The translations under genes and the position numbers were made by a program. The notes under the pieces are model-generated. The model was given only the letters and a program-made list of their open reading frames with translations, was not told where the DNA came from and did not search any database. Shown one piece after another: positions 3,232 through 64,000 of a DNA stretch of 64,000 bases; positions within the stretch are counted from its first letter, which is position 1; the number at the start of each line of letters is the position of its first letter. Location: positions 51,950-115,949 of IMG/VR virus record IMGVR_UViG_3300015371_000004. One strand, written 5' to 3'. This DNA comes from a virus.

Positions 3232-3238
3232 GTTTGGT

Positions 3239-3248
3239 GTATTACCCC
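3239..3248 (-). promoter_or_regulatory. GGGGTAATAC promoter-like box
   Basis: GGGGTAATAC reads leftward, with seven bases between its last base and the ATG at 3231. It is a member of the GGGGTA-NN-AC family seen at about sixteen intergenic positions. The spacing would give an almost leaderless transcript if TAATAC is a -10 element. Confidence 0.6.
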
Positions 3249-3757: not shown

Positions 3758-3777
3758 ACTCATCCCTCTCGACAAGC

Positions 3778-19046: not shown

Positions 19047-19056
19047 GTAATACCCC
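19047..19056 (-). promoter_or_regulatory. GGGGTATTAC promoter-like box
   Basis: GGGGTATTAC reads leftward in the 19-base gap between genes, directly after a TGA stop and nine bases before the GTG at 19037. Member of the GGGGTA-NN-AC family. Confidence 0.55.
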
Positions 19057-22283: not shown

Positions 22284-22293
22284 GTACTACCCC
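22284..22293 (-). promoter_or_regulatory. GGGGTAGTAC box with leaderless spacing
   Basis: Reads leftward, with five bases to the ATG at 22278. It overlaps the stop of the zeta-like gene. Member of the GGGGTA-NN-AC family. Confidence 0.55.
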
Positions 22294-23378
22294 GTCTCCA
22301 GCGTCTTCTTCCGGGCCTTGAGCCGGAAGCTCTTCCAGAGCCGCTTGTTGTGGATGACGAGCGCCGGGCCGCGCGCCGAGGCCACCAGCCGCGGCTCCCC
22401 CAGCTTGTTCGTGTCCCAGAGCCGGAACTCCGTGAAGAGCCCCCGGCGGACCACCCGCGGGACCACCTGCGAGACACCCCGATGAGCCTCCCGGATGTAG
22501 GGGTGCGGCGTGTAGCGCCCCTGCCGTGGGCCCGGCTTGAGCGCCCCCTGATCGGACAACCGGAGCGCCAGTTCCACCGAATTCGTCGCGTAGTCGGCGA
22601 TCACCCGGTAGCCCTTCTTCCGGAACCCTTCGAGCTTGTCCGTCAGCTTGTCGATGCTGCTGTCGCCCACGCCATCGAGCACGATGTCCTGCCCGTTGCT
22701 GAGCGCCTTCATGATCACCTTGAACGTGATGTCGCTGCTCTCCTCATGGCTGAGCGTCGAGGCCCGGTGGTCCCCGCCCAAGACCATCGCCTGATACTCC
22801 GGGATCCGCGCTTTGACCGCGTCCGGGTTGGCGTAGACCGCGAGGCCCGTCGGCGGGAACTTCACCAGCCCGGTATTGACCATGGTCGACTTGCCACTGG
22901 CCGGGCCGCCGCCCGTCATGTAGACCGTCTGGTTGGTGCTCTTCGGGATGCCGCGTGTCAGCTCGTCCACAATCCGGTCGTGGAGCTTCAGTCGCTCAGC
23001 CGTATAGACTCCGTCCTTCGAGTATATCTGCTTGGTGTCCGGCGGCAGCGCCTCGAAGTCCTCGCAGATCCCGGTGCCCTTCGGCGCGAACCGGCCGCCG
23101 ATGCCCGAGCCTGCGGGCTCATGGCAGCGGTTGAATTCCTGAAGACGCCGGGTCCAGTCCCGCCTCCGGCTGAGCAGGAAGTCAGCCCAGCTGACGTTTC
23201 CCGTCCGGCGTTTCCACTGCTGGAAATGGCTCTGCAGGACCTTGAGGACGCCAACCGCCGTGCCGCTGTCCGCCGGTCTTCCCCGATGGGAAGCGAAGCG
23301 GCCAAGCCGGTCGTGGTAGTGGTTGTACTCCCGGGTCCGCGGCAGCTCGGGCTCGGAATTCGAGGCGGGAACAATCAC
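22287..23378 (-). CDS. second zeta-toxin-like kinase with two GRFA-type tags
   Basis: A 363-residue protein. P-loop GGGPASGKST is at about 156-165, followed by NPDAVKARIPEY (about 184-195) and LSHEESSD, as in zeta toxins. Two short tags precede the kinase: YNHYHDRLGRFASHRG (about 19-33) and FNRCHEPAGSGIGGRFAP (about 82-99), the same class as in the terminase-side proteins at 1047, 2167 and 3248. Shares the YTAERLKLHDRI helix with the kinase at 1047. No antitoxin gene is apparent. Confidence 0.7.
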   Translation of the reverse strand: MIVPASNSEPELPRTREYNHYHDRLGRFASHRGRPADSGTAVGVLKVLQSHFQQWKRRTGNVSWADFLLSRRRDWTRRLQEFNRCHEPAGSGIGGRFAPKGTGICEDFEALPPDTKQIYSKDGVYTAERLKLHDRIVDELTRGIPKSTNQTVYMTGGGPASGKSTMVNTGLVKFPPTGLAVYANPDAVKARIPEYQAMVLGGDHRASTLSHEESSDITFKVIMKALSNGQDIVLDGVGDSSIDKLTDKLEGFRKKGYRVIADYATNSVELALRLSDQGALKPGPRQGRYTPHPYIREAHRGVSQVVPRVVRRGLFTEFRLWDTNKLGEPRLVASARGPALVIHNKRLWKSFRLKARKKTLETG

Positions 23379-47438: not shown

Positions 47439-47770
47439 TTCACAAGATCAACCCCGTGCAGAGCGGGCTGGCGAACTTCACGCCCGCGGAGAGGACCGAG
47501 TGGGCCTACATCGGCGGGCGGCTCTTCTTTCGCAACATGCCCCCGAAACTTGCGGCCCACAAGGGCGGCAATTCGATCGACAGCACCTCCCGGCTCTGGT
47601 ACCGGCCCTCGGGGGAAACCGCTGGCGGGATGCGCTGGGACGTGGACCCGACCCCGCCGCATCTGATGTGTGAGTGCGGCAGCGACACCTTCGTGCTGTC
47701 GTACGGCGACTACCAGCTGATTGCCACGTGCACGAACTGTCAGTACACCGAGAGCGTCTTCGATGGCTAA
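47435..47770 (+). CDS. 111-residue CxxC protein
   Basis: GTG start overlapping the previous stop. CECGSDTF and CTNCQYTE form a zinc ribbon near the C-terminus. It overlaps the HerA-like start by eight bases. Function unknown. Confidence 0.55.
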   Translation: MIHKINPVQSGLANFTPAERTEWAYIGGRLFFRNMPPKLAAHKGGNSIDSTSRLWYRPSGETAGGMRWDVDPTPPHLMCECGSDTFVLSYGDYQLIATCTNCQYTESVFDG

Positions 47771-49592
47771 GCCCATCTATCTTGGCCAGCATGCCTCGCT
47801 CGCGCTCGACAAGCTCCTGACGACGCGCCTCCTCGTACAGGCGATGTCCGGGGCGGGCAAGACGTACGCGCTCCGGCGGCTGCTCGAACAGAGTCACGGC
47901 GCCGTCCAGCATCTGGTCATCGACCCGGAGGGTGAGTTCCCCTCCCTCCGGAGTCGATTCGATTACGTCTTGGCGGCCAAGCGTGAGGGCGATACGCTGG
48001 CGGATCCACGGACGGCCAAGCTCCTCGCCGAGCGGCTCCTCGAACTAGGCGTCTCGGCGGTGCTCGACATCTACGAGCTGCAGCACCATCAGCGGATCGC
48101 GTTCGTGAAGACCTTCCTCGAAACGCTGGTCGATGCGCCCAAGCGGCTCTGGCATCCGGTGCTCGTGGTCCTCGATGAGGCGCATGTCTACGCGCCCGAG
48201 AAGACCGGCGCCGAGAGCCTGAGCGCGGTCATTGATCTGGCGACTCGGGGGCGGAAGCGCGGCTACTGCCTGATCGCGGCCACCCAGCGGCTCTCGAAGT
48301 TCCACAAGGACGTGGCGGCTGAACTCGGCAACAAAATGATCGGGCGGACGACGCTCGACGTGGATCTGAAGCGCGCAGCCGACGAGCTGGGGCTCATGAA
48401 GGAGGACTGGGCGGCGCTCCGCGACCTGAAGGACGGCGAGTTCTATGCCTTCGGGCCCGCGTTCAATCACGTGAGCGTGAAGACCATCACGGTCGGCGAC
48501 GTGCAGACGCATCACCCGAAGTCTGGGGCGCACGCCGCGGCCGTCGTGCCGCCGCCCTCCGACAAGGTCAAGGCCGTCTTGGCGAAGATTGCCGACCTGC
48601 CTGCCGAAGTCGAGCAGAAGGCGAAGACCGAGGCCGATCTCAAGAAGCAGATCGCCGAGCTGCAGCGGGAGAACCGGCAGTGGAAGACCGCGACGGTGGG
48701 TGGGGCGATCCATGGGGCGCCGAAGCCTGCGATCTCCGACACCACGCGCGGGCTCTTCAAGGCGGTCGTTCAGGCGACGGACAATGTGGCTGGCGTCATC
48801 GAGACGCTGGAGGCCGAGGCGCAGGCCGCGCTCAGGAAAGCGATGGCGCCGGTTGTGGTCAAGCTGCGCGCCCCGCTTGAGAATCTGCGTAAAGCGCAGC
48901 GCGGGATCTCAGTCCTGCTTGATGGGCAGAAGACGCTGGCGGCGGCCACCGCGATCAACGTAGAGATGCACAAGCTGGCAAAGATGGGGGAGCTGCCTCC
49001 GGGTCGGATCAAGGAGCTGCCAGCTTCGAAGCGCCGCGTGTTCGGCGGGTTCATTCGCGCGCCTCTGCCTGCCCCCGGAGAAGAGATGCTCACCGGCCCG
49101 GAGCAGCGGATTCTGAACGCGCTGGCCCAGCTCGACCAACTCGGCAACACCGAGCCGACCGAGACGGCCGTGGCCTTCCTCGCGCGCTACACGGTGAGCG
49201 GCGGTGGGTTCAACAATCCCAAGGGTCGCCTGCGCAGCCGGGGCTGCATCGAGTACCTGCCCGGCGGACGGCTCCGGCTGACCGAGCAGGGGAAGGCACG
49301 CGCCCACTGGCCGGACGTCCCGGTCACCAATGAGGACCTGCACGCGAACATCTTCAGCTTACTAGACGGACCGCAGACCAAGATCCTCAAGCCGCTCTTG
49401 GACATCTATCCCGGGGAGCTGTCTCTCGATGAGCTGGCCGAGCGGACCGGCTACAGTGTGGACGGCGGTGGGTTCAACAATCCCAAGGGCCGACTCCGAT
49501 CGCTCGGGCTGATCGAGTACCGGCCGCAACGCAAGGTCGTCGCGTCGGCGGCCTGCTTCGTTGAGGAGCCCGTTGAAGGACCCCATGTATAA
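47763..49592 (+). CDS. HerA/FtsK-like ATPase with duplicated winged helix
   Basis: A 609-residue protein from the ATG at 47763. Walker A AMSGAGKTYAL (about 26-36), a Walker B VLVVLDEAHVYAPE (about 134-147) and ATQRLSKF are as in HerA/VirB4-type ATPases (DUF87). A coiled coil follows (KTEADLKKQIAELQRENRQW). The C-terminal 150 residues hold two copies of GGGFNNPKGRLRS, each in a winged-helix-like unit (about 481 and 575), encoded by near-identical DNA. Such ATPases pump or unwind DNA; no NurA partner gene is recognised. Confidence 0.72.
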   Translation: MAKPIYLGQHASLALDKLLTTRLLVQAMSGAGKTYALRRLLEQSHGAVQHLVIDPEGEFPSLRSRFDYVLAAKREGDTLADPRTAKLLAERLLELGVSAVLDIYELQHHQRIAFVKTFLETLVDAPKRLWHPVLVVLDEAHVYAPEKTGAESLSAVIDLATRGRKRGYCLIAATQRLSKFHKDVAAELGNKMIGRTTLDVDLKRAADELGLMKEDWAALRDLKDGEFYAFGPAFNHVSVKTITVGDVQTHHPKSGAHAAAVVPPPSDKVKAVLAKIADLPAEVEQKAKTEADLKKQIAELQRENRQWKTATVGGAIHGAPKPAISDTTRGLFKAVVQATDNVAGVIETLEAEAQAALRKAMAPVVVKLRAPLENLRKAQRGISVLLDGQKTLAAATAINVEMHKLAKMGELPPGRIKELPASKRRVFGGFIRAPLPAPGEEMLTGPEQRILNALAQLDQLGNTEPTETAVAFLARYTVSGGGFNNPKGRLRSRGCIEYLPGGRLRLTEQGKARAHWPDVPVTNEDLHANIFSLLDGPQTKILKPLLDIYPGELSLDELAERTGYSVDGGGFNNPKGRLRSLGLIEYRPQRKVVASAACFVEEPVEGPHV

Positions 49593-50298
49593 CCGCACGC
49601 TCCACCCGGATGATCTGACGAGCGGCCCGCTCGTCCCGTACGTCGAACGGCTCGCCGCCTTCGAGAAGCGGCTTTCCTCGCTCGGGATTGCCTACCGGAA
49701 GGACCATGGCTACCGGGCGTGGGAGTACGCGACCCTGCTCCAGCTCTTGGAAGACCGAGCCGTCCCGAAGGATGCCGCCATCCTCGACACGGGCAGCGGC
49801 GCGTCCTACCTCCCGCTCTATCTGGTCGCCGAGGCGGGCTACACCAACGTCACGGTCACCGACTCGATGGCCTACGGCGACATCGAGCCGATGCTCGTCG
49901 AGCAGTGTCTGGGGCTCGGGATCCTCGTGCCGATGCGCCGGGTGTCGGTGGAGGGTCTGATCGAGGAGTTCGGTCCGGCAACCTTCGACGTCTCGATCTG
50001 CGTCTCGACCATCGAGCATGTGGCCAACGATCTCTACCCGGCGGCGATGCGCAGCCTGATCGAGGTGACGAAGCCGGGCGGGATCGTCTATCTCACGACG
50101 GACGTCTTCCCGGATTTCCAGTCCCACGCGGCCTCGCCCTTCAAGCAGATCCAGCACACGATCTTCACCCCGACCGGGCTGACCCGGCTGCCTGACGTCT
50201 ACCCGGTGGACTACATCGGGCCGGTCGACTTCACCTACCGGGGGAGCTTTGTCCACAACTACACGTTCGGGGCGATGGCGTTCACGAGGAGAGCGTGA
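49585..50298 (+). CDS. class I SAM methyltransferase
   Basis: A 237-residue protein from the ATG at 49585 (alternative TTG at 49573). Motif I is AAILDTGSGASYLPLYLVAE, and further down TFDVSICVSTIEHVANDLYP with a KPGGIVYLTTD block. It may methylate a sugar or small molecule. The GTG of the glycosyltransferase overlaps its stop, so the two probably act on the same product. Confidence 0.72.
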   Translation: MYNRTLHPDDLTSGPLVPYVERLAAFEKRLSSLGIAYRKDHGYRAWEYATLLQLLEDRAVPKDAAILDTGSGASYLPLYLVAEAGYTNVTVTDSMAYGDIEPMLVEQCLGLGILVPMRRVSVEGLIEEFGPATFDVSICVSTIEHVANDLYPAAMRSLIEVTKPGGIVYLTTDVFPDFQSHAASPFKQIQHTIFTPTGLTRLPDVYPVDYIGPVDFTYRGSFVHNYTFGAMAFTRRA

Positions 50299-51077
50299 GA
50301 GACGTCTCCATCTGCTTCGTGTACTTCAAGACGTTAGAGCTGCGGCATCTCGACGCGGCGTGGTTCAGCGTCTCGAAGCAGGACTTCTCGTACGTCAACA
50401 CGGTCTACTTTCTTGACAACAGCACGGACGATGACCTCTTCGCCATTCAGGAGGTCCTCAGCCGCTACCCGCTGCCGGTGCCACTTGTCTTCTGCTCGGA
50501 CAAGCATGGGCGGTCCGATCGGACGCAGTCATGGTCGGTCAATCGTGTCTGCCAGATGGCGGTCGGGCCGTGGATCTTTTTCACGAGGGCTGACTACATT
50601 CTCGACTTCGACGCGGTGACTCGCATGGCCGGGCGAGCGCGCGCGATGGAGGCCGCCGGTCAGAAGCCGTTCGTCTCGGGCTGGTGCTGGCAGATGGCCT
50701 ACGACCGGGAGGCCGCCAACCTGAACGCCTTCGTCGACATCGAGCAGTACGGCTGGCGGGAGAAGGGGATGGCGGCGCTCCTCCCCGGCCCTGATGGGAC
50801 GGGCGGGCATCCGTACGCCTTCCGTTTCCACGAGACCGACCGGGACGCGGGCGTCTGGATGACCCAGAAGACCTACATGGCGCAGGCGGGCTGGATGAAC
50901 GAGAAGATGGTGTCGTGGGGCTTCCAGCAGTCGGTGTGGCAGCGGGTGCTCCAGCGATCGGCGGGCGTCACGTGCCACGCGATCGAAGACTACCTCTTCG
51001 CCCATCAGCATCACTGGGCGCCGCGCGACTTCACGACGGCGCACGATGAGTACGGGCGGTTCGGCGGGAGCCAATGA
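50295..51077 (+). CDS. glycosyltransferase (GT-A type)
   Basis: A 260-residue protein from a GTG. SICFVYFKTLELRHLDAAWF, then FLDNSTDDDLF, IFFTRADYILDFDA (DxD-like acidic patch) and a C-terminal GWMNEKMVSWGFQQSVWQRV that resembles the acceptor-site region of galactosyltransferase-like GT-A enzymes. It may attach sugar to a phage or cell-surface target. Coupled to the methyltransferase before it. Confidence 0.65.
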   Translation: MRDVSICFVYFKTLELRHLDAAWFSVSKQDFSYVNTVYFLDNSTDDDLFAIQEVLSRYPLPVPLVFCSDKHGRSDRTQSWSVNRVCQMAVGPWIFFTRADYILDFDAVTRMAGRARAMEAAGQKPFVSGWCWQMAYDREAANLNAFVDIEQYGWREKGMAALLPGPDGTGGHPYAFRFHETDRDAGVWMTQKTYMAQAGWMNEKMVSWGFQQSVWQRVLQRSAGVTCHAIEDYLFAHQHHWAPRDFTTAHDEYGRFGGSQ

Positions 51078-51169
51078 ATCTGGGCGACTCCGGATGGGCC
51101 GTGCTTGACCTGCTGCTCTTCATGGTCTGGGCGAACGCGCGCGGGTGGTGGACGTGGAGGCGCCCGTGA
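51074..51169 (+). CDS. 31-residue membrane microprotein
   Basis: ATGA overlap with the glycosyltransferase, and GTGA into the next gene. Mostly hydrophobic (WAVLDLLLFMVWANARGWWT). Function unknown. Confidence 0.4.
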   Translation: MNLGDSGWAVLDLLLFMVWANARGWWTWRRP

Positions 51170-51474
51170 CCCTCTACTTCGGCTGTGGGATTCACGAGGC
51201 GGGCGACTCCTTGGAGACGAACTGCCCAATCTGTACGCGGGAGGCGCATGACCGGCACGTTCGGAGCGCAGGCACTACCTCCGAATTGCGCAAGGGTGAC
51301 TTGACGGTCGAGGCGTATCTGGATGGGAGTTTCGAGATCCAGCTGAAAGGGCATGGCAGGCTCCGTGTCTTTGGCTACGACGTGGAGGCGCAAGCCATGA
51401 ACCTCATCGACCTGCTGCAAGCGTACCTGCTGGTCCGGAAGACCAACCATTTCCGGGTGAAGGATGACCGATGA
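51166..51474 (+). CDS. 102-residue CxxC protein
   Basis: GTG start. FGCGIHEAGDSLETNCPICT supplies Cys/His ligands for one metal, and the rest is beta-rich (LTVEAYLDGSFEIQLKGHGR). Function unknown. Confidence 0.5.
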   Translation: MTLYFGCGIHEAGDSLETNCPICTREAHDRHVRSAGTTSELRKGDLTVEAYLDGSFEIQLKGHGRLRVFGYDVEAQAMNLIDLLQAYLLVRKTNHFRVKDDR

Positions 51475-51860
51475 TGAACCTCATCGACTTGCGTGAACAC
51501 GTTGTCGACCCCTTCGAGCGCGGCAAGATCATCGAGTGGCTGGAGCGCGAAGGCTTCAAGGACTACAGTGGCCTCGGCTATTGGGAGAAGTGCTACTCGC
51601 TGAACTACAGCTACCCAGTGATGCGCGTCGGGATGCCCGAGGGGCAGCTCTGCGCGACGATCGCGTTGTCGGACGCCAGCACGACGGACGCCGTGCATCA
51701 GGATCGGCGCACCGTGTACCTTGGGGAGGCGTACACCGTGCCGGTCATCGCGGCCTTGTGGGCCGTGCTGAATCTCTTCGACTTCGATGAGAGCCGCAGT
51801 CACGCGTACTGGCGCGACTATCACGAGCGGCGGTATCCGATGCCCGCTAAGAAGGAGTGA
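51471..51860 (+). CDS. 129-residue hypothetical protein
   Basis: ATGA overlap. Alpha/beta protein (FERGKIIEWLEREGFKDYSG ... VIAALWAVLNLFDFDESRSH). Function unknown. Confidence 0.5.
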   Translation: MMNLIDLREHVVDPFERGKIIEWLEREGFKDYSGLGYWEKCYSLNYSYPVMRVGMPEGQLCATIALSDASTTDAVHQDRRTVYLGEAYTVPVIAALWAVLNLFDFDESRSHAYWRDYHERRYPMPAKKE

Positions 51861-51863
51861 CCG

Positions 51864-52133
51864 ATGCCCAATAACCCCCCGATCCCCTTCGGGTCTGCGC
51901 TGCCGATCAACGTCAAGGCGCCGATTCACCATGCGGCCAACGGCAGCTGCGTCTTCACGTGCAGCTGCGGCATGGGGCCGATGATGATCGGCAGCTACGA
52001 CTCGGCGGTCGTCTGCACGGGCTGCCACACGCTCTGGCAGATTCAGGAAGCGCACATGCGGCGGACGCCGGAGGGCGTCGAGGTGCTCGTCAAGCTCGGG
52101 CACACCCAAGCGCCAGCCACGAGGCCCATGTGA
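51864..52133 (+). CDS. 89-residue zinc-ribbon protein
   Basis: Contains VFTCSCGMGPM and VVCTGCHTLW as two CxC/CxxC knuckles, then a short helix. Stop overlaps next GTG. Function unknown. Confidence 0.55.
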   Translation: MPNNPPIPFGSALPINVKAPIHHAANGSCVFTCSCGMGPMMIGSYDSAVVCTGCHTLWQIQEAHMRRTPEGVEVLVKLGHTQAPATRPM

Positions 52134-52483
52134 GCTACCAGCGCTGGACGACCGGCGACGCCTACGTGTACGGCTACGAGATCCAGTCGACAGGGGAGCG
52201 CGGGTTCGTCTGTTGCGCCTGCGAGCTGCAGACGGACATCACCCAGCCGAGCGGCTACCTGAACCACTTCACGACGTACCGCGGGATCATCGCGCATTTG
52301 GAGACCTACCACACCGACTCCGAGTACGCCTTGGAGACCCTCCGCGCCGAGGCTGAGGTGATGGGGCTCGATGGGGTCTACCCGTTGCGTGATGATCCAA
52401 ACTTCGACCGCCTCACCGAGATCGCCATCCGCCTCAATGCTGACCCGGCTCGCCAAGCCAAAGGCCGGGTGAACCCTAGATGA
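52130..52483 (+). CDS. 117-residue zinc-finger-like protein
   Basis: GTG start (GTGA). GFVCCACELQTD and HFTTYRGIIAHLETYH give a CxxC...HxxxxH finger. C-terminus is helical. Function unknown. Confidence 0.55.
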   Translation: MSYQRWTTGDAYVYGYEIQSTGERGFVCCACELQTDITQPSGYLNHFTTYRGIIAHLETYHTDSEYALETLRAEAEVMGLDGVYPLRDDPNFDRLTEIAIRLNADPARQAKGRVNPR

Positions 52484-52821
52484 TTACCACGACGATTACA
52501 ATCAACAAGGAGACGTTTATGCCTGAAGGCGATCCGCAGCTGAGGATCACAGCGGCCCGCAAGGGCCCCGTCAAGAAGGGAAGCAAGGGCACGAAAAAGA
52601 AGGCCAAGGCCAAAGAGAAGACCTCGATCCCCATCGCGACCGTCGCCGGGCGGCTCCTGAACGGACGGGGGCTCGTCGAGGCCGAGCGCTGGCTCCGGAA
52701 CCTGACGCTCTATGACACGTCGGCGACCGACGAGGACCGGACCAACGCGCTGACCATCCTCGGGGCGATCGAAGGGATGCGGCGGCTGGCGGGGTCGGCG
52801 CTGACCCAGCGGGAGAAGTAA
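52480..52821 (+). CDS. Lys-rich 113-residue hypothetical protein
   Basis: The first ATG is at 52480 (ATGA). A better-placed ATG at 52519 has AAGGAG upstream and may be the real start. A lysine-rich linker (KKGSKGTKKKAKAKEK) is followed by a helical domain. Function unknown. Confidence 0.5.
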   Translation: MITTTITINKETFMPEGDPQLRITAARKGPVKKGSKGTKKKAKAKEKTSIPIATVAGRLLNGRGLVEAERWLRNLTLYDTSATDEDRTNALTILGAIEGMRRLAGSALTQREK

Positions 52822-52823
52822 GG

Positions 52824-53036
52824 GTGCCCGGGCCCGTCAGCGAGTCGAGTCGGGGGCCGTCTGACGACGCTCCCTACGTCCCTAACTGGTGCTACCCGAA
52901 GGGCCCGCGGATGTGCCCGTGCGGCCACCATGAGGGCTACCACGACGATCACGGCGCCTGCCTGCACGCGGCTCGCTGTGGGTGCGTGGGCATTCCAGTC
53001 GACTGCGTGACTCCGGACGATGAGATGGTAGACTGA
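52824..53036 (+). CDS. 70-residue Cys/His-rich protein
   Basis: GTG start. CPCGHHEGYHDDHGACLHAA, then RCGCVGIPVDC, is rich in Cys/His and metal-binding. It is the last gene before the terminator at 53065. Function unknown. Confidence 0.55.
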   Translation: MPGPVSESSRGPSDDAPYVPNWCYPKGPRMCPCGHHEGYHDDHGACLHAARCGCVGIPVDCVTPDDEMVD

Positions 53037-53064
53037 GGCTTCCGAAGAGAGGCTCGTACGGCAG

Positions 53065-53106
53065 ACAGCCGAGGGTGGCCTGCCCCACTCTCGGCTGTTT
53101 TTGTTT
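53065..53106 (+). terminator. Rho-independent terminator
   Basis: ACAGCCGAG (53065-53073) pairs with CTCGGCTGT (53090-53098) across a 16-base loop, followed by a T-rich run TTTTTGTTTT. It ends the transcripts of the preceding rightward operon. Confidence 0.8.
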
Positions 53107-53109
53107 TCC

Positions 53110-53280
53110 CTACCGCGGATGAATCTTCGGCGCCGGAGGCGGCGTATGCGTCCCCGGAGGCGTCGTCGGCGGTGACGTCGGCGGCGTCGAGGGCGGCGGA
53201 CTCGGTGGCGAAGGCGGCGACGGGTTCGAAGGATTGGGCACGGTCAGCTCACTTTCTGGAGGCGCAGCTCCGCCTACCAT
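53110..53280 (-). CDS. possible Pro-rich 56-residue protein
   Basis: ATG at 53280. The product contains PSPPSPPSPPPSTPPTSPP and ends APKIHPR. The repeat-like Pro/Ser/Thr content suggests a linker or surface peptide. The opposite strand is Gly-rich but has no start. It lies in the leader of the radical SAM gene and against that gene's direction, so it may not be expressed. Confidence 0.35.
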   Translation of the reverse strand: MVGGAAPPESELTVPNPSNPSPPSPPSPPPSTPPTSPPTTPPGTHTPPPAPKIHPR

Positions 53281-53321
53281 CCTGCACGTTCGGTGCCTAC
53301 CTGAGCATCTTGGGTTTGTAG

Positions 53322-53410
53322 ACCCGCCATTCATGTAGGCGGGTACGTCACCCGCCAACCTTGGCATCCACTGGAGGGCGCCACCCTCCTGACAACGGAC
53401 AGAAGGTTGG
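53322..53410 (+). promoter_or_regulatory. structured leader with alternative hairpins before the radical SAM gene
   Basis: ACCCGCC (53322-53328), GGCGGGT (53338-53344) and ACCCGCC (53350-53356) allow two mutually exclusive 7-base hairpins. GGAGGG/CCCTCC (53373-53389) forms a third. It is enclosed by CCAACCTT (53355-53362) pairing with AAGGTTGG (53403-53410), which holds the AAGG Shine-Dalgarno seven bases before the ATG at 53414. This is a plausible translational switch. No known riboswitch consensus, including the B12 box, was identified. Confidence 0.5.
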
Positions 53411-53413
53411 TAC

Positions 53414-55033
53414 ATGGGGAAGATCATCAGTCTGGCCAGCTCGGCCTATCAGATGAGCGAGCCGAGCGCCTGTGAAGTCCAAGGCTCCGGGTTGCCGCTC
53501 GGGCCGGTGCCACCGAAGAAAATCCACTGCATTCTCCCGTCGAGCCCGTGGCTCGCCGACTCGAAGACCAACATTCCTCTCGGCGTGCTCTACGTGGCGG
53601 GCCTGCTCCGGGCTCATGGCCACGAGGTCTGCGTCACCTCGATGCTCGACAAGCGCTACGAGGGGAACATCCACCTGCCCGAGGAGGTCATGGACGCCGA
53701 CGTCCATATGTTCGGGTTCTGTACGCCGCAGTTTGGGGAGGCGCTTGAGCTGGCGGCCTACATCAAGGACCGGGTTCCGAACGCCCTCCTTGTGGCGGGT
53801 GGGCCCCATCCGAGCTACGAACCGGCCGAGGTGAAGGCCGCCGTCCGGCAGGAGAGCTACCACACCAAGGGCCCGCTCCGGGCCCGGCGCGACTACGGCA
53901 AAGGGATTGACACCCGGCCACTCTTTGACACCGTCATTGTCATGGAAGGTGAGCGCGCGGTGCTCCAGATGCTGTCCGACTGGTATCAGGGCGTGCTCCA
54001 GCCCTTCTACTACGGGGACAAGCAGGACGCCATGGATCTGGACGCGATCCCGTTCCCGGCGTGGGACCTGCTCCCCGATGATCACATCTTCAACGACGGC
54101 GTCGCGGTCATGAAGAAGCGCTACATGGAGTCGCCGGTCCGCCCGGGCACGTGGCCGGTGATGTCGATGATCGGGACCCGCGGCTGCCCCTACAAATGCA
54201 CGTACTGCTCGACGCCGTGGATCGGGCAGAAGCCGCGGTACCGCTCGCCCGCCAATCAGATCGCCGAGCTGCAGGCGATCTTCGATCAGGGCGTCCGGCA
54301 GATCAAATGGCAGGACGACACCTACACGCTCCACCGGACCAAGCTCCGGGAGCTGGCCGAGGCGATCGATCAGGCGTTCGGGCGGGAGACGTTCGCCAGC
54401 CGCGTGCACACCCGGGTCAACACCATGGACGACCACGTCGCCGAGTCGCTCACGATGATGAGCTGCAAGGTCACCTGCTTCGGCATCGAGTCGGGGTCTC
54501 AGCAGGTGCTCGACGCCAACCAGAAGGGCACCAAGGTCGCCCAGAACACGGCCGCGCTCATCAAGGCCAAGGAGCACGGGTTCTCGACGGTGGCGTTTCT
54601 GGTGGCCGGGCTGGCAGGCGAGACCATGGAGACGGCCAAGGAGACGCTCGGCTGGCTGGAGAAGGTCCGGCCGTCCCTCGACTACTGCAATCTGGCGGTC
54701 GGGATCCCCTACCCCGGCTCCCGGTTCTGGACCCATCCGAGGGAGTCAGGGATCGAGATCGTCGACTACAACTACGACAACACATGGATTGTCGGGTTCA
54801 ATGCGCGCGACGAGATTCTGGTCCGGCCCGACGGCTGCACCATCGACGAGATGTTCCGGATCAAGGAGATGATGTTCAAGGGGCTCTGCGATCTCGGATT
54901 TGCGAAGGCGGAGTGGGACGAGGACGTCCGCATCCGTCGGCAGCAGGAGGCCGCGGCCAGCGCAGGCGTGCTTGCGAAAGCGGCCGAAGAAGGTGGGACT
55001 GCGGCCGGGAGCCTGAGCTACGCCGGGCACTGA
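53414..55033 (+). CDS. B12-binding-domain radical SAM enzyme
   Basis: A 539-residue protein. The N-terminal 200 residues form a cobalamin-binding-like Rossmann domain (NIPLGVLYVAGLLRAHGHEV ... MFGFCTPQFGEALELAAYIK ... LLVAGGPHPSYEP). RGCPYKCTYC at about 255-264 carries the CxxxCxxC iron-sulphur motif, and a TIM-barrel follows (IKWQDDTY, FGIESGSQQVLDANQKGTK, GLAGETMETAKETLGWLE). Such enzymes methylate or rearrange unreactive carbons. Substrate unknown; the neighbouring glycosyltransferase and methyltransferase suggest a sugar or surface-related target. Confidence 0.8.
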   Translation: MGKIISLASSAYQMSEPSACEVQGSGLPLGPVPPKKIHCILPSSPWLADSKTNIPLGVLYVAGLLRAHGHEVCVTSMLDKRYEGNIHLPEEVMDADVHMFGFCTPQFGEALELAAYIKDRVPNALLVAGGPHPSYEPAEVKAAVRQESYHTKGPLRARRDYGKGIDTRPLFDTVIVMEGERAVLQMLSDWYQGVLQPFYYGDKQDAMDLDAIPFPAWDLLPDDHIFNDGVAVMKKRYMESPVRPGTWPVMSMIGTRGCPYKCTYCSTPWIGQKPRYRSPANQIAELQAIFDQGVRQIKWQDDTYTLHRTKLRELAEAIDQAFGRETFASRVHTRVNTMDDHVAESLTMMSCKVTCFGIESGSQQVLDANQKGTKVAQNTAALIKAKEHGFSTVAFLVAGLAGETMETAKETLGWLEKVRPSLDYCNLAVGIPYPGSRFWTHPRESGIEIVDYNYDNTWIVGFNARDEILVRPDGCTIDEMFRIKEMMFKGLCDLGFAKAEWDEDVRIRRQQEAAASAGVLAKAAEEGGTAAGSLSYAGH

Positions 55034-57424: not shown

Positions 57425-57630
57425 CCTACTATTTAGTGCCCGTCGAGATGTGCGAAGCGCTCGTGCGTGTCTTCGAACGGGAGTACGTCCAGCGCACGCC
57501 GGACGGTGAGCTGGTGCAGGAGTTCATGCGGCGGGTCGACCGGAAGACGTTTGAGAAGCAGATCGACCTCTTCCCTCGTCACAAGGAACTGCTCAAGGAC
57601 GAGGGGCCTGCGCCGAACAAGCTGTTCTAA
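57421..57630 (+). CDS. 69-residue helical protein
   Basis: ATGA overlap. Helical (MCEALVRVFEREYVQRTPDG, KTFEKQIDLFPRHKELLKDE). The last gene of the rightward arm. Its TAA overlaps the TAG of the leftward structural gene (CTAA at 57627-57630). Function unknown. Confidence 0.55.
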   Translation: MTYYLVPVEMCEALVRVFEREYVQRTPDGELVQEFMRRVDRKTFEKQIDLFPRHKELLKDEGPAPNKLF

Positions 57631-57932
57631 AGATTCGCCAGCACGGTGAATTTCAACCGGGACGTGTACCACTGCCCGGAGGGCAGGAGCGACCGCGTCT
57701 GCACTTCCCAGTTCCCCGCCTGATTAATATCCCCGTCGATGGTGTTGTAGTCGACGAAGCCGGACGCATTTTGGAAGGCCGAGGGCGTGACGGTGAAGGT
57801 GGTGCCGTCGGGCCGCTTGAAGGTGACCGGCGACTCAATGGCGGTCGTGAGATCGACCGGACGCCCGTTCGGATGCTTCACCCGCAGGCGGATCTTTGTG
57901 TTGATCGGGTTGACCTGTAGGTGCGCAGGCAT
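57627..57932 (-). CDS. 101-residue tail/baseplate-like beta protein
   Basis: The pattern IRLRVKHPNGRPVDLTTAIE, TFKRPDGTTFTVTPSAF, GFVDYNTIDGDINQAGNWEV is common in phage baseplate and tail accessory proteins (Ig-like folds). Start shares a base with the stop of the preceding gene (TGATG). Likely a structural protein. Confidence 0.55.
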   Translation of the reverse strand: MPAHLQVNPINTKIRLRVKHPNGRPVDLTTAIESPVTFKRPDGTTFTVTPSAFQNASGFVDYNTIDGDINQAGNWEVQTRSLLPSGQWYTSRLKFTVLANL

Positions 57933-60478
57933 CAGTCCTCCTTGGCGCTCGCGCCGCCGGTCCCGGCAATCACGGTCGTGATGGTCACGACCCCGTTGAG
58001 TTCCTGCACGAGCTTGACGTCTCCGCTCAGATCCTGCACGAGGTAGACGTCCCCTTCGAGAATAAAGTGCGGGGACGCCAGAATCGTGGACGTCCCCACA
58101 TACGCGAAGCTCTGCAGGCGGAAGAAGCGGTCGGCCTGCACGAAGTCCGGGTAGCTCGGCGCCCAGCTGAGCGGCGGCACGGCCTGCGCGGACAGGAACC
58201 CCGTCGGCTCGAAGGTGGAGGGCACTCGGGACGCGTGCACCTCCTGCCGCGGGATCCAGACCGGCCACTGCCCGCGCCATCCGAACTGGTCGACGGGGAC
58301 CGGGAGCACGAGCGACCCCACGACCACGCTGGAGGCGAGCGGCACCGGGAGCAGAAGGCTCGGGTAGTCCGGCGACCAGCTGAGCGGCACGACTTGCGGC
58401 AGCGGGTGCCGGAAGACGGCCGGATGGTGGGCCGCGGTCAGCGTGACCGGCGGTAGCCAGACCGGGTAGGTCGGTGACCAGCTCAGCAGGGGCGCCGCCG
58501 CCATGGGCAGCGGACTCTTGAAGTAGAACGGCTGCTGAGCGGTCAGGATCGAGCGGCCGGGCTCAATGAAGAGCGGGTAGCTCGGCCCCCATGAGAGCGG
58601 CGGAGCCGCGGCCATCGGCAGCGGGGACTTGAAGTAGGCCTGCTGCTGAGCGGCAAGGAGGGCCTTCGGCGGCGGATGGAGGTCCGGCCACACGCCCTGC
58701 CAGTGGAGCTGGTCGACCGCCTGAACGACGTAGACGAGCGCCTGATAGGGCAGCGTCTGCACCGGCAGGCGCGTCGGCTGCGGCCAGACCGGCGTCCAGC
58801 TGAGGAGCGGCGCCGCGGGCATCGGCAGCGGCGACTTGAAGTAGGCCGGAACCCTCGACGCATGGACGAGTGACGCGAAGACCTGATCCGGCCACGACCC
58901 GCGCCAGCCAAACTGGCTCGTGGGGACGGCGATCGGGAACGGGTCGAAGAAGACCGCCCGCTGGAGCGCGGCGGCGAGCGAGAGCGCGCCGAGCGCGCGG
59001 TCTGGATAGACCGGCCCCCATGAGAGCGGAGGCGCTGCCGCCATGGGCAGCGGGCTCTTAAAGAAGGCCTGCTGCTGACCTGTCAGAAGTGACAGGGGCG
59101 GCGCGAGGAGGTCCGGGTAGACGCCACGCCAGCCCAACTGGTCGACCGCCTGAACGACGTAGACGAGCGAGAGCCACCCCGGTGTGACCAAGGCGCTGCG
59201 GGTCGCCTCGGGATAGCTCGGGGCCCAGCTGAGCAGCGGCGCCGAGGCCATGGGCAGCGGCGACTTGAAGTAGAACGGCGTCGCGGCTGTCAGAAGCGAC
59301 AGAGGACCGAGGGCTCGGTCAGGGTAGCTTGGCCCCCATGACAACGGCGGCGCCGCAGCCATCGGCAGCGGCGACTTGAAGTAGCTCGGGACGTGCGCGG
59401 CCGTCAGCTCGCGGCGGAAGACCTGATCGGGCCAGACCCCTCGCCACGCGAACTGATCCGGTGCCGTGATCGGGAACGGGTTGAAGAAGTGCCACCGCTG
59501 CAGCGCCGCGTGCAGGCTGAGCGGCCCGGTCGCGAAGTCCGGGTACGTTGGGTGCCACGAGAGGGCTGGGGCCGCCGCCATCGGCAGCGGCGACTTGAAC
59601 GAGGACGGCCACAGGTGCGCGCCGGTCCACGGGACGAGGTGCTGGTCGGGCTCCTGTCCGCGCCACCCCAGCCGGGCGATGTCGTCCGGCTCACGAAGCG
59701 GCCGGACATACCAGCCGGTGGGCTCAGGAATGCGCCGTTCGATCCAATCCGGGCGTTGACTGCGCCACCCGAGGCGCGCGATGTCCGGCGGCTCGTTCTG
59801 CGGCTTCGCATACCACCCGCTGTAGTCCGGCCGGTGCCGGATGACCTGATCCGGGAAGACCCCGCGCCACTGATAGAGCGCGCTGAGTTCAGGCCCACGA
59901 ACAGACCACCCTTCGTAGGTCGGGATCTGCCGGTCTATTCGAGCCGGATAGTTCGGAGACCACGACAGCGGCGGTGCAGCTGGGAGCGGGGTCTCAGGCT
60001 TGAAGTACCAGTCCAGCTGCGACGCGTGGACGTCTTGACGCTCAACACGATCCGGGAAGTAGCCGCGCCATGCGTACTGGTCGACGTTCTGGACGACTGG
60101 CGTGAACGAGGACCAGAAGTGGAATGGCGCGAGCGGCGCGTGAAAGCTCGGCCGGAAGAGATAGTCTTGGAACTCCGGATACCACTGCGAAATCTCTTCT
60201 TCGGCGGCCTCGGGCAGCGTCGAGCCGATCGCGTAGGGCTGCTCAAGGACCACGTCGTAGCACGGCGTCCAGTCGAGCTGGTTCGGGTTGTACGTGGACG
60301 GAATAACCGCCCCGGCCACAAAGAAGATGGCTGGGATCAGATTGGCGGTGATGACGCCGCGTAGTCCAACTTGATCGGGGTAGCTTGGGAGCCAGCTGTT
60401 CTTCGGAATGTTCTGGCCCGGTACCATGACCGGACCGAAGATTTGCTGCTGATTCTCGGTGAGCGGGTCCTGCGCCAT
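57932..60478 (-). CDS. 848-residue repeat protein (WRG..PD and LSW..YPD units)
   Basis: The protein alternates two degenerate units: about nine of the W-R-G-x-x-P-D-x-V type and ten of the P-L-S-W-x-P-x-Y-P-D type. Seven of the latter are preceded by FKSPLPMAAAP. The N-terminal 100 residues begin the repeats with looser copies. The end (EGDVYLVQDLSGDVKLVQEL) is a short beta region. The DNA also shows repeats. It is likely an elongated surface fibre or adhesin in the structural block. No enzymatic motif is visible. Confidence 0.6.
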   Translation of the reverse strand: MAQDPLTENQQQIFGPVMVPGQNIPKNSWLPSYPDQVGLRGVITANLIPAIFFVAGAVIPSTYNPNQLDWTPCYDVVLEQPYAIGSTLPEAAEEEISQWYPEFQDYLFRPSFHAPLAPFHFWSSFTPVVQNVDQYAWRGYFPDRVERQDVHASQLDWYFKPETPLPAAPPLSWSPNYPARIDRQIPTYEGWSVRGPELSALYQWRGVFPDQVIRHRPDYSGWYAKPQNEPPDIARLGWRSQRPDWIERRIPEPTGWYVRPLREPDDIARLGWRGQEPDQHLVPWTGAHLWPSSFKSPLPMAAAPALSWHPTYPDFATGPLSLHAALQRWHFFNPFPITAPDQFAWRGVWPDQVFRRELTAAHVPSYFKSPLPMAAAPPLSWGPSYPDRALGPLSLLTAATPFYFKSPLPMASAPLLSWAPSYPEATRSALVTPGWLSLVYVVQAVDQLGWRGVYPDLLAPPLSLLTGQQQAFFKSPLPMAAAPPLSWGPVYPDRALGALSLAAALQRAVFFDPFPIAVPTSQFGWRGSWPDQVFASLVHASRVPAYFKSPLPMPAAPLLSWTPVWPQPTRLPVQTLPYQALVYVVQAVDQLHWQGVWPDLHPPPKALLAAQQQAYFKSPLPMAAAPPLSWGPSYPLFIEPGRSILTAQQPFYFKSPLPMAAAPLLSWSPTYPVWLPPVTLTAAHHPAVFRHPLPQVVPLSWSPDYPSLLLPVPLASSVVVGSLVLPVPVDQFGWRGQWPVWIPRQEVHASRVPSTFEPTGFLSAQAVPPLSWAPSYPDFVQADRFFRLQSFAYVGTSTILASPHFILEGDVYLVQDLSGDVKLVQELNGVVTITTVIAGTGGASAKED

Positions 60479-60480
60479 GG

Positions 60481-61293
60481 TCAGGCCGCCCTACGCGGAA
60501 CCCAGAGCCCAGACTGGCGGCGCACGAGTACGTCCGGAGCCTTGCGGCACCCGGGTGTCATCCCGCCCTGCATGACCGGACGCTCAGGCCCTTGGAGCGC
60601 GGTATCGGCGTAGCGCCCCCGCCATCCGAGCGTGCGAACATCAGCGGGATGGACCGCGATTGTGAAGGCCGTCCAATCATCAAGCGTCCCGGCCACACTC
60701 CAGACACCAGCGTTCTCGGAACTCGCGGTCGCCGTCCTGTTGGCCGCGCCACACGTGACGTTTGTGGTCACCGCACCGACCGTGCCGCTATTCGCAAACA
60801 GCTGATTCGAGGCGTAGTTGGTCGGATACGTCGTGACGCCGGTCTGCTCACCTTCCATCCCATACACGGTGATCCACAGATAGTCCTTGGACCCACCGGT
60901 TGGTGTGACGGTTCCCGCATCCGGCTGTGTCGCGCTGCCCGTCGTGCGCGCGCCGACCTCTGGGGCTTGAACGGTCGGACTCTCGGCGCCAGTAATCCGC
61001 CACGACAACGCGGCGAACTTCGCATTGCCATTCGCGGTGAGCGTGACCGTCGCGCCTTCAGACCCATCGGCCTTCCGCCACGCAAGACTCTGCACGTCAT
61101 CGGCCGCGTCCGGGCTCTCGTCGAAAATTTCATTCCATCCAGCAGGCCACGTGTGACCGCCAATGATAGCCACCCGGATATAAGCGATCAGGAGGTCGCC
61201 GGAGAGGATGCCCGTCGGAAGATTGATCGCGGCGGTGCCTGTTGCGGTGGTGCCGTTCGTCGTATTCGTCTGGCTGACGGATGGGAACGCCAC
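60481..61293 (-). CDS. tail-associated beta-sandwich protein
   Basis: A 270-residue protein from the GTG at 61293 that overlaps the preceding TAG (TAGTG). The block GILSGDLLIAYIRVAIIGGH ... WNEIFDE ... SLAWRKADGSEGATVTLTAN ... SWRITGA occurs in many phage tail and adhesin proteins of unknown function. The C-terminus carries one TLGWRGRYADTALQ unit like the repeats of the next protein, so the two may share an interface or origin. Probably a fibre component. Confidence 0.55.
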   Translation of the reverse strand: MAFPSVSQTNTTNGTTATGTAAINLPTGILSGDLLIAYIRVAIIGGHTWPAGWNEIFDESPDAADDVQSLAWRKADGSEGATVTLTANGNAKFAALSWRITGAESPTVQAPEVGARTTGSATQPDAGTVTPTGGSKDYLWITVYGMEGEQTGVTTYPTNYASNQLFANSGTVGAVTTNVTCGAANRTATASSENAGVWSVAGTLDDWTAFTIAVHPADVRTLGWRGRYADTALQGPERPVMQGGMTPGCRKAPDVLVRRQSGLWVPRRAA

Positions 61294-62534
61294 TACCGCA
61301 TCCCACGACGCAGAATCGTCGGATGACCGCCCATCCACCCCATCGGGGGTGGGTGCGTGACGCTGACCGTGGGCGTGGTCGCCCTCACGCTCAGCATGGC
61401 CGACTGCAGGGTCGTCCCGGACGCGCCGACCACCGTCTGATAATTCACCTCGTCGGTGGCCACCACCGCATCCGAATTGCTCGCATCTTCAAAGAACCCA
61501 GTCGCCCCCGATCCGATGCTGATCGACTGGTTCCCATTCGCCCCATTCTTCCGGAATCGAATCGTCGAGGTCGCCGTGACCCCATTCGAGATCACGTGGC
61601 TCGTCATCTTTGAGAACGTGTGGCTGACTGGCACTTCCTGACGCACATCCGCCTCGGTCGTGGTCGACTCCAGCTCGCCAGCGAGCCCGTTGTAGTACGT
61701 CGTCGCCGCCGACAGAAAGACGTTTCCGTTCAGCGCCCCGATCGTATAGGCGGCATCCGTGACCAGCTCGGCCGAGAGCAGCGGGAAGTTCGACGACACC
61801 ATCGCCAACCCGGCGGTGACCGAGAGATTGATGGTGTCCCCAGCCGCAATCGTGTCCGTGTGCGTCGTATCCTCGAACTGGCCGCTCGCGCCTGATCCGA
61901 GCGTGACGATGTTGGTCCCGTCCGCCCCGTTGATCCGCGTCTTGAAGGTGAGGGGATTCGCGCCGTTATTCGTGCCGACCACGAACAGCGCCTTGAGCGA
62001 CCCACCCGCCAGCACCTTCCAGTGATGATCCGATTCCGTCGTGGTCAGGCCCAGCGCCGAGCGTCCAATAATGTTGGTGAACAGCGTGTTGTCGCTGAAG
62101 TTGACGGTCAGGTTCGTCGAGTTTAGACAGTAGGTCGAGAACTGCGTGGGCGACGCCGTCTCGAACTGCGTGGACACTAGGCCAAACGTGACCAGCGTCC
62201 CGCCCGTGCTGACAAAGCGGAGGCCCACGAGGTCCCCGGCCGCGACCGCATCGCTGTGCGTCGTGTCCGTGAACTCCCCGGTCGCGCTCGCGCCGACCGT
62301 GAACGTGAGCGTCCCGTTCGCGGTGTTGATGCGCGAGGTCGCCACAATGGACGTGTGGTCGTTGTTGAGGATGCGCGCGTACAGCTGACTTAGGGTGCCC
62401 GCCGTCCGGAACGTGCGCTGCTGACTCGCTTCGGTCAACAGCATGTTCGGATGCCCGATCCCGACGCAGCAGTGCCGCGTATTGGCGTCGGACGTGAAAC
62501 CGCCCGCCCGGCGTGTGAGCATCAGGGCCTTCAC
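61293..62534 (-). CDS. 413-residue fibre-like protein with three internal repeats
   Basis: Three repeats of about 35 residues have the form R-(I/K)-N-x-A-(N/D)-G...(G-S)-G-x-F-x-D-x-x-x-x-D-x-(V/I)-(A/V)-A-x-D: SRINTANGTLTF..., TRINGADGTNIV... and FRKNGANGNQSI.... They are separated by about 100 residues. The composition is Thr/Ser/Gly/Asn-rich and beta-sheet-like. The ending is SVTHPPPMGWMGGHP. Typical of phage tail or fibre proteins. Confidence 0.6.
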   Translation of the reverse strand: MKALMLTRRAGGFTSDANTRHCCVGIGHPNMLLTEASQQRTFRTAGTLSQLYARILNNDHTSIVATSRINTANGTLTFTVGASATGEFTDTTHSDAVAAGDLVGLRFVSTGGTLVTFGLVSTQFETASPTQFSTYCLNSTNLTVNFSDNTLFTNIIGRSALGLTTTESDHHWKVLAGGSLKALFVVGTNNGANPLTFKTRINGADGTNIVTLGSGASGQFEDTTHTDTIAAGDTINLSVTAGLAMVSSNFPLLSAELVTDAAYTIGALNGNVFLSAATTYYNGLAGELESTTTEADVRQEVPVSHTFSKMTSHVISNGVTATSTIRFRKNGANGNQSISIGSGATGFFEDASNSDAVVATDEVNYQTVVGASGTTLQSAMLSVRATTPTVSVTHPPPMGWMGGHPTILRRGMR

Positions 62535-62866: not shown

Positions 62867-64000
62867 CTAGCCTCCGCAGGTCTTCGTCATGAGCGGCGTC
62901 GTCACGGCCGGGACGCCGGTCGCCGTCCAGACGATGTAGAACGAATGCACGCCGGGCGCCACGTTCGCATTCTTCGAGAAGGGCGCCGTGTTATCCGAGC
63001 CCAGCACGATGTTCGCGTCCCGACGGAAACTGGCCGTCCAGTTGTGCATCGTATCCGGGGGCATCGTCGCCTCCAGCACATAAATGCAGTTGGTCTGCGT
63101 CGCGGTCGGTGGCGGAACTGGCTGAGGCGCCGCGTTGTCTACCGTGCGGGTCAGCGGCGTCACGAGCGACCCGTTGTTCCCCGCCGCGTCCTTCCCGATC
63201 ACGGAGAACGTATGCGACGTATTGGCCAGCGTCGTGGTATCCACGCTGAAGGAGTACGGCGCGCTCGTGAGTGGAGCCCCGGCATTCGTCCCGTCAATCA
63301 CGAGCTGCAGGCTCGTGCAGGCGACGTTGTCGCTGCAGGTCGCCGTGATGGTGATCGTGTTCTTCAGCGGAGACGGCGGCACCGTCAAGGTGACCGCCGG
63401 TGGCACCGTGTCCGGTGGCGGCGGCTGTGACCCAATCGTGACCGACGCCGTCTGGGGGGCCCCATTCGCCACGACGCGGACGACCGCGATGGAGCCCACC
63501 GGGAACCGGTTCGACCCGCCTTCGTCCACGTAGACCGTGAACACCGTTCCAGCAGTGTTGAAGGGCCCAGTCGGGCCATTCACAAGCGGCCCGTTGACCG
63601 TCGTGCTGACACCGGCCACCCAGCTTGGTGTTGCGTCCGACTCCCACGTGCCATTCCCATTGGCCGCATCGACGCGGACCGATGAGAGAGTCACGGACGA
63701 GGGGAATGTCACTGAGAATGCGGCGTCTCGTGTCCCGTTCGGGCTCAAGACCCGTCCCGGCGAGACCTTGTCATACAGCTGGTTCCCGAGGTAGGCGACC
63801 GTCAGCGTCGGCGGCGGACCCCCATTCTTGACCGTCACCGTGACGACGGCTGACGTCGTACTGTTGCCCGCGGCGTCTCGCGCGACCGCCGTGAGCGTGT
63901 GCTGGCCATCAGCCACCCCGAGCGTGGACCACTGAGTGGTCCATGGCGGCGAGGTGAACTCGCTGCCGAGGTTCGCGCCGTCGAGCTTGAACTGCACCCC
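62867..64000 (-). CDS. Ig-like repeat surface protein, partial
   Basis: The frame is still open at the right edge; at least 377 residues are present. Ig-like modules are seen, e.g. KLDGANLGSEFTSPPWTTQW with HTLTAVARDAAGNSTTSAVV, and DGTNAGAPLTSAPYSFSVDT with HTFSVIGKDAAGNNGSLVT, plus a middle beta region. These are the DGxxxGxxxxxxP...AxDxAGN repeats of secreted and phage surface proteins. It likely forms part of a fibre or adhesin. Confidence 0.65.
   Translation of the reverse strand, partial: GVQFKLDGANLGSEFTSPPWTTQWSTLGVADGQHTLTAVARDAAGNSTTSAVVTVTVKNGGPPPTLTVAYLGNQLYDKVSPGRVLSPNGTRDAAFSVTFPSSVTLSSVRVDAANGNGTWESDATPSWVAGVSTTVNGPLVNGPTGPFNTAGTVFTVYVDEGGSNRFPVGSIAVVRVVANGAPQTASVTIGSQPPPPDTVPPAVTLTVPPSPLKNTITITATCSDNVACTSLQLVIDGTNAGAPLTSAPYSFSVDTTTLANTSHTFSVIGKDAAGNNGSLVTPLTRTVDNAAPQPVPPPTATQTNCIYVLEATMPPDTMHNWTASFRRDANIVLGSDNTAPFSKNANVAPGVHSFYIVWTATGVPAVTTPLMTKTCGG

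What the first reader, a model, noticed from the sequence alone, without database searches (positions are those of the whole stretch)
57932..60478. Highly repetitive WRG / LSW-YPD fibre-like protein
About nine WRG..PD units alternate with ten LSW.P.YPD units over 848 residues. The repeats are rich in Trp, Tyr and Pro. No familiar fold is recognised, and one unit also occurs at the end of the neighbour at 60481. Such a regular aromatic repeat may be a new fibre architecture.
Basis: seen in the sequence. Interest (0 to 1): 0.7.

Follow-up and report, generated by a model that had tools for sequence, protein, structure and literature searches.

The report
Rope-like aromatic-repeat phage fibre protein
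An uncultured virus of bacteria encodes a long protein built from about 21 copies of a tryptophan-, tyrosine- and proline-rich 35-residue unit; it belongs to an unrecorded protein family found with the same small partner genes in many environmental phages, and it is most likely the rope of a chain-like virion fibre plugged into an Ig-like collar protein.

Summary
The ORF is on the minus strand (848 aa). 'WRG' and 'LSW..YPD' are two flavours of one ~35-aa unit with core W-x-[PG]-x-[YWF]-P-D, repeated 21 times. The core motif occurs 18 times against 0.15 in shuffles. Codons are nearly randomised between copies, so the protein is old and selected. No Pfam, PHROG or PDB family matches, and no record among 50,697 phage records.

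It is not an orphan. Fifteen other contigs carry the family, with 3-26 units each, and about a dozen more turned up downstream of the partner gene. Fourteen of 16 family genomes, this one included, also carry the same two unnamed genes: a ~150-aa protein ('A7') and a Cys4 zinc finger. After the repeats comes a tail of usually three ~11-residue strand repeats. Its type matches the small Ig-like gene downstream: all 16 tails associated with BppU-like genes end in Cys, and 0 of 7 others do. In three relatives the Ig-like gene is homologous to gp77, the fibre-tail adaptor of podophage GP4.

Best reading: an extended rope protein of a chain-type virion fibre, plugged into the collar by its C-terminal tail. 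That it is a structural virion protein is very likely, but inferred. That the units are bead-docking sites is unproven, and AlphaFold2 gave no fold.

The parts
57932..60478 (-). Repeat ('rope') protein, 848 aa, ATG start, penultimate gene of the late minus-strand operon
58055..60409 (-). Array of 21 units of ~35 aa (residues ~24-808), core [LFA][SGA]W-x-[PG]-x-[YWF]-P-D, two flavours (LSW and WRG/WRS/WQG)
57965..58054 (-). C-terminal tail (residues 809-838): GDVYLVQDLS / GDVKLVQELN / GVVTITTV, three ~11-aa strand repeats; the only part AlphaFold2 modelled as strands (pLDDT ~61-72); proposed adaptor plug
57627..57929 (-). Ig-like small protein (~100 aa) directly after the repeat gene; homologous to the gene after the repeat protein in L044; BppU_N resemblance below the Pfam cut-off; proposed collar/adaptor
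60481..61338 (-). Beta-sandwich-type protein ending in one WRG unit; homologous to the N-terminal domain fused to the repeats in L105
60562..60630 (-). The single WRG unit near the C-terminus of the 60481 gene (LGWRGRYADTALQGPERPVMQGG)
61293..62534 (-). Protein of ~three similar domains; a homologue lies two genes upstream of the repeat gene in L047 (E=3e-8); likely part of the same appendage
62867..64000 (-). C-terminal part of an Ig-domain (Big_7) fibre gene whose N-terminal part lies at the other end of the contig (G000:C1:1-3126)

Best explanation
The protein is the rope (backbone) of a chain-like virion fibre. Its ~21 W-x-P-x-YPD units form a long, extended, proline-stiffened strand with no globular fold of its own. 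Its C-terminal tail of three short strands plugs into a small Ig-like collar/adaptor protein encoded by the next gene (57627-57929), which fixes the rope to the tail or neck. Other small proteins encoded in the same cassette (best candidate A7, at G000:C1:3478-3906; possibly the beta-sandwich 60481-61338) would dock along the units, as gp80 dimers sit on fibre I of podophage GP4. Shown: the repeat, the family, the conserved cassette, the match between tail type and adaptor type, and gp77-type adaptors next to some relatives. Inferred: presence in the virion, extended conformation, tail-adaptor binding. Speculative: one bead per unit, and A7 as the bead.
For: (1) A unit profile built only from this protein recovers 15 other loci at E 2e-51 to 5e-5; the best of 816 shuffled or reversed sequences reached 0.11. 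(2) 14 of 16 family genomes, including this one, carry both A7 and the Cys4 zinc finger; the two exceptions are a 5-kb fragment and L047. A7 occurs in only 1 of 50,697 phage records. In the reverse direction, 17 of 53 A7 loci with at least 4 kb downstream carry the repeat by profile, and about 9 more by eye. (3) Next to the repeat gene in L048 is Pfam PF23148 'GP4 fiber-tail adaptor gp77' (E=1e-25), matching PDB 8jou_D (E=5e-6); L098 and L056 also have gp77 homologues downstream. (4) Tail type follows adaptor type: 16/16 BppU-like cases end in Cys, 0/7 others do; gp77 cases carry ExRxxxV repeats. (5) In isolated phages with gp77 homologues, the gene just upstream is again a tandem-repeat protein with such a tail (BcepIL02 gp56, Microcystis phage Mwe-JY26), and BcepIL02 gp55 is the GP4 bead 8jou_a, E=2e-48. 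The homologous bead and adaptor of phage JC1 (gp53, gp55) were found in virions by mass spectrometry (PMC9144972). (6) 15.7% Pro and 14.6% W/Y/F in the array, median Pro-free run about 4 residues; no AlphaFold2 fold.
Against: This genome has no gp77 (PF23148) and no gp80 bead homologue. Its adaptor is an Ig-like protein that falls below the BppU_N cut-off. A7 shows no detectable homology to the GP4 bead, and the W-x-P-x-YPD unit shows none to the repeats of BcepIL02 or Mwe-JY26. Unit number (about 3-26) is often far above the five bead dimers recalled for GP4 fibre I. Some relatives have other gene orders: L051 and L044 sit among head/tail genes, and in L072 and L084 other genes intervene before the adaptor. 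AlphaFold2 with a thin alignment often fails on repeats, so the lack of a fold is weak evidence.
Confidence: 0.55

Rival explanations
1. Self-contained fibre: the units fold with each other, probably in a trimer, into a regular aromatic/proline-packed shaft that carries an adhesin. The small partner genes then build other parts.
For: Very regular units with an invariant W and a strongly conserved P-Y-P-D core; fusion to beta-sandwich or LamG-like domains in L105, L048 and L092; neighbouring fibre genes.
Against: AlphaFold2 monomer models show no fold; Pro content leaves little room for long strands or helices; fixed co-occurrence with A7 and zinc finger.
Confidence: 0.25
2. Head or neck decoration: the protein is draped on the capsid or neck rather than on a tail fibre, tying head proteins together.
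For: L044 lies directly before a decoration-type gene and the probable major capsid protein; L048 and L051 lie between head genes and the neck/tail-terminator/tube or sheath genes. From memory, GP4 fibre I also touches the head edges.
Against: gp77-type fibre-tail adaptors next to L048 and L098; in the window phage the gene sits after the tape measure, amidase and fibre genes.
Confidence: 0.12
3. Disordered sticky linker or adhesin: the W/Y/P-rich array itself binds host surface polymers and has no partner.
For: Composition, lack of a predicted fold, and large length variation from 196 to 1242 aa.
Against: The core W-x-P-x-YPD spacing is kept across very distant phages and codons show old purifying selection, which exceeds what a loose linker needs.
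Confidence: 0.08

Closest known systems
Podophage GP4 fibre I (PDB 8JOU; Zheng et al. 2023, J Mol Biol 435:168258): gp80 bead dimers, gp79 'rope' (the rope from memory), gp77 fibre-tail adaptor
   Same: Module logic of small ~140-150-aa protein, tandem-repeat rope and small Ig-like adaptor; gp77 homologues lie next to the relatives L048 and L098 and downstream in L056.
   Different: No gp77 or gp80 homologue in this genome; the rope repeats could not be matched in sequence; A7 is not detectably homologous to gp80; many more units.
BcepIL02 gp55-gp57 / BcepMigl (Bcep22-like podophages)
   Same: Gene order bead - repeat protein with strand-type tail - adaptor; bead and adaptor homologues found in JC1 virions (PMC9144972).
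   Different: Repeat is ~21 aa (GAGxADMxLxxxGNGTRRTF), with no match to the W-x-P-x-YPD profile.
Alishewanella phage LSH1 gp34-gp36 'extra structural module' (PMC13243795)
   Same: Three virion genes at the end of the late operon: a payload with an unpredictable, possibly repetitive region, a GP4-like fibril protein (8JOU_g, HHpred E=0.0075), and an Ig-fold protein.
   Different: Sequence relation to the present family was not tested; the authors left the unpredictable region unexplained.
BppU N-terminal domain (PF10651)
   Same: The 100-aa gene after the repeat protein resembles it.
   Different: 14.4 bits against a cut-off of 23.1.

Membership tests
GP4-type chain fibre (bead, rope, gp77 adaptor) | gp77-type fibre-tail adaptor (PF23148) encoded with the rope | tested here: not met
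   Absent from the window genome. Met in the relatives L048 (E=1e-25), L056 and L098.
GP4-type chain fibre (bead, rope, gp77 adaptor) | gp80-type bead protein | tested here: not met
   No match in the own genome; A7 occupies a similar place but is not homologous by hhalign or PDB profile search.
GP4-type chain fibre (bead, rope, gp77 adaptor) | Long tandem-repeat protein with a C-terminal tail matched to the adaptor | tested here: met
   (tail type follows adaptor type).
GP4-type chain fibre (bead, rope, gp77 adaptor) | Present in virions as an extended strand | not testable with these tools
   Uncultured virus; no proteome or micrograph.
Known repeat families (Pfam, PHROGs, PDB) | Significant profile match of the repeat region | tested here: not met
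   No family at E<=0.1; best PDB hit E=0.28.
BppU_N (PF10651), for the 57627-57929 gene | Score above Pfam's curated cut-off | tested here: not met
   14.4 against 23.1 bits.
W-x-P-x-YPD repeat family defined here | At least 3 units of 31-41 aa with the core motif, profile E<1e-3 | tested here: met
   21 domains; 15 other loci.

The most novel reading that the evidence does not exclude
Each W-x-P-x-YPD unit is a docking site for one copy or dimer of a cassette-encoded bead (A7), so the phage builds a fibre by threading many beads on one unfolded rope. The number of units sets fibre length, and an exchangeable three-strand plug fits the rope to whichever collar protein (gp77-, BppU- or other Ig-type) the phage uses. 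This would be a general bead-on-rope fibre system in uncultured phages, of which GP4 fibre I is one outlying example.
Probability: 0.3. Interest if true: 0.75.

Novelty: new variant of a known kind. Interest (0 to 1): 0.6.

Why it matters
It would give a name, a motif and a working model to a family of long unannotated phage proteins that occurs with fixed partners in many environmental phages but in none of the phage records searched. It also offers a possible explanation for the unpredictable repetitive region that the authors of the LSH1 study left open. If the tail-to-adaptor rule holds, attachment of such fibres can be read directly from sequence, and unit number would predict fibre length, both testable in the lab with purified proteins.

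Tried and rejected
Single-protein relative search: none. tblastn of this protein and of L010, L043, L048, L056 and an artificial consensus against 50,697 phage records: none; plasmids none with L044. The tool itself works, since gp77, portal and A7 queries do hit. The first DNA patterns also drew many chance hits on unrelated low-complexity or out-of-frame sequence, which were discarded after translation. Two alignments were too variable for a relative scan. A sliding-window MSA for AlphaFold2 aligned copies onto themselves and was replaced by A4. AlphaFold2 failed for six units (pLDDT 41.9, pTM 0.14) and for the whole protein (32.2), so no fold search was run: a low-confidence model gives meaningless matches. 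A7 as homologue of the GP4 bead: not supported. The GP4 rope was not found in PDB sequences with BcepIL02 gp56 or BcepMigl gp57. The GP4 paper is not in the library, so 'rope protein gp79' rests on memory; PMC13243795 and PMC10925440 confirm only the fibril and the 15:12 collar. Tunturiibacter phages share a portal relative with L017 but have no repeat protein by the profile.

Full report
WHAT IS THERE. The ORF at 57932-60478 is real, on the minus strand, 848 aa from an ATG; the plus-strand frame contains stops. It has no other strong feature than its repeat. A profile made from its own units finds 21 copies over residues ~24-805, W-to-W 31-39 aa apart in the main array. They do not strictly alternate. 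The core motif W.[PG].[YWF]P occurs 18 times against 0.15 expected (maximum 3 in 5000 shuffles). Between the most similar units, identical residues use identical codons in 125 of 214 cases, 109 being expected from codon usage alone. The repeats are therefore old and kept at the protein level.

THE VIRUS. The window is part of a 115,949-base IMG/VR record. Portal, head protease, major head protein, amidase and an unmatched 1897-aa ORF that by size and position should be the tape measure all lie on the minus strand further left. With 'linear' contig ends falling inside one Ig-domain fibre gene (L002:1-3126 and window 62867-64000), the late operon apparently runs round the contig ends... 445-aa gene - A7 - zinc finger - fibre - 111-aa gene - triple-domain protein - beta-sandwich - repeat protein - Ig-like protein. 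The circular reading is an inference; about 25 residues of an Ig domain would be missing between the ends.

THE FAMILY. Pfam, PHROGs, PDB and tblastn against 50,697 phage records gave nothing. DNA patterns for two consecutive units, run over IMG/VR and GTDB genomes, then translation and a profile test, gave 15 further members. Selection by the pattern guarantees two units; the remaining units (up to 26) and the gene context are independent support. Members run from 196 to 1242 aa.

THE CASSETTE. Four relatives share a ~150-aa gene ('A7') and a Cys4 zinc-finger gene upstream. Profiles of these two then found both in the window phage (G000:C1:3478-3906, E=1.5e-40; 3208-3450, E=1.5e-21), in L048 and, altogether, in 14 of 16 family genomes. 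A7 is found in only 1 of 50,697 phage records, so the association is far beyond chance. A separate IMG/VR scan with A7 gave 98 relatives. The zinc finger follows in nearly all of the 80 fetched, wherever downstream DNA is available, and the repeat is found within the downstream flank in 17 of 53 loci with at least 4 kb, about 26 of 53 if diverged units judged by eye are counted.

THE PLUG. Directly after the repeat gene, often with overlapping stop and start, lies a small protein of 90-130 aa of one of three kinds: BppU-like, the Ig-like type of the window, or gp77-like. In L048 it is Pfam PF23148, the fibre-tail adaptor gp77 of podophage GP4 (E=1e-25), with PDB 8jou_D at E=5e-6. L098 and L056 also carry gp77 homologues downstream. 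The repeat proteins end in short strand repeats of ~11 residues, usually three, whose type follows the adaptor: 16/16 with a BppU-like adaptor end in ...ED-L-C-type Cys, gp77 cases carry ExRxxxV repeats, and the window, L044 and L115 carry a third type. For the Cys rule, 16/16 against 0/7 gives a nominal p of 4e-6, and 13/13 against 0/6 after removing near-duplicates 4e-5; shared ancestry is not corrected for. This is the best evidence that the C-terminus docks to the adaptor. AlphaFold2 models only this tail as strands.

THE COMPARISON. In isolated phages with gp77 homologues the same logic recurs with unrelated repeats: BcepIL02 gp55 (bead; equals PDB 8jou_a, E=2e-48), gp56 (repeat protein, annotated virion-associated), gp57 (adaptor); Microcystis phage Mwe-JY26 has an 834-aa repeat protein before gp77. 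The JC1 homologues of bead and adaptor were found in CsCl-purified virions (PMC9144972). Phage LSH1 carries a three-gene virion module of this kind, with an unpredictable, possibly repetitive region that its authors could not explain (PMC13243795). From memory of the GP4 paper (not held), GP4 fibre I consists of gp80 dimers linked by an elongated rope protein gp79 on a 15-fold gp77 collar; the 15:12 collar is confirmed by PMC10925440.

MECHANISM. Most likely the protein is such a rope. Shown: repeat, family, cassette, plug-adaptor match, gp77 neighbours in relatives. Inferred: virion protein, extended state, docking of the tail to the Ig-like protein. Speculative: units as docking sites for A7. 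Whether the units instead fold as a self-contained shaft cannot be decided here; both AlphaFold2 runs were uninformative.

MEMBERSHIP. It is not filed as a member of the GP4 fibre system, because gp77 and gp80 homologues are absent from this genome. It is described as working like one, with confidence 0.55; that it is a structural virion component of some kind I put at about 0.9.

Noticed in passing
window 1047-2162, 2167-3276, 3248-3775, 22287-23378 (all -); L002:18317-19321, 19328-19999; L003:18100-18621, 19054-19998; L004:1-352: At least nine predicted proteins of this phage share a short tag, mostly near the N-terminus, of the type E-x-N-D/P-C-H-x-P-x-G-S-P-D-G-G-Q-F-C. Two of them carry zeta-toxin kinase domains (PF06414, E~1e-21). 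It looks like a common sorting or packaging tag for a set of effector-like proteins.
   Followed up: partly
window 62867-64000 (-) and G000:C1:1-3126 (-): The two ends of the 'linear' contig lie in what looks like one Ig-domain fibre gene, so the genome is probably circular or circularly permuted and nearly complete.
   Followed up: partly
G000:C1:3208-3906 (-) and ~80 IMG/VR loci (L070-L148): A7 (~150 aa) plus Cys4 zinc finger is itself an unnamed, widespread two-gene cassette in environmental phages, found also without the W-x-P-x-YPD repeat.
   Followed up: partly
window 47721-49592 (+): HerA/FtsK-like ATPase that PHROGs links to a terminase family (phrog_2666, E=1.6e-19), while another terminase-like fragment lies at L004:10239-11117.
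   Followed up: no
window 49561-55033 (+): Methyltransferase, glycosyltransferase and B12-binding radical-SAM genes close together, possibly a modification pathway.
   Followed up: no
L105 (repeat ORF) against window 60481-61338: The beta-sandwich that is a separate gene here is the N-terminal domain of the repeat protein in L105, and the separate gene still ends in one unit: gene fission or fusion within the fibre.
   Followed up: yes
window 58589-59557 (repeat protein residues ~308-630): Higher-order duplication inside the array: unit pairs W308/W487, W345/W525, W418/W561 and W450/W593 are among the most similar pairs.
   Followed up: no
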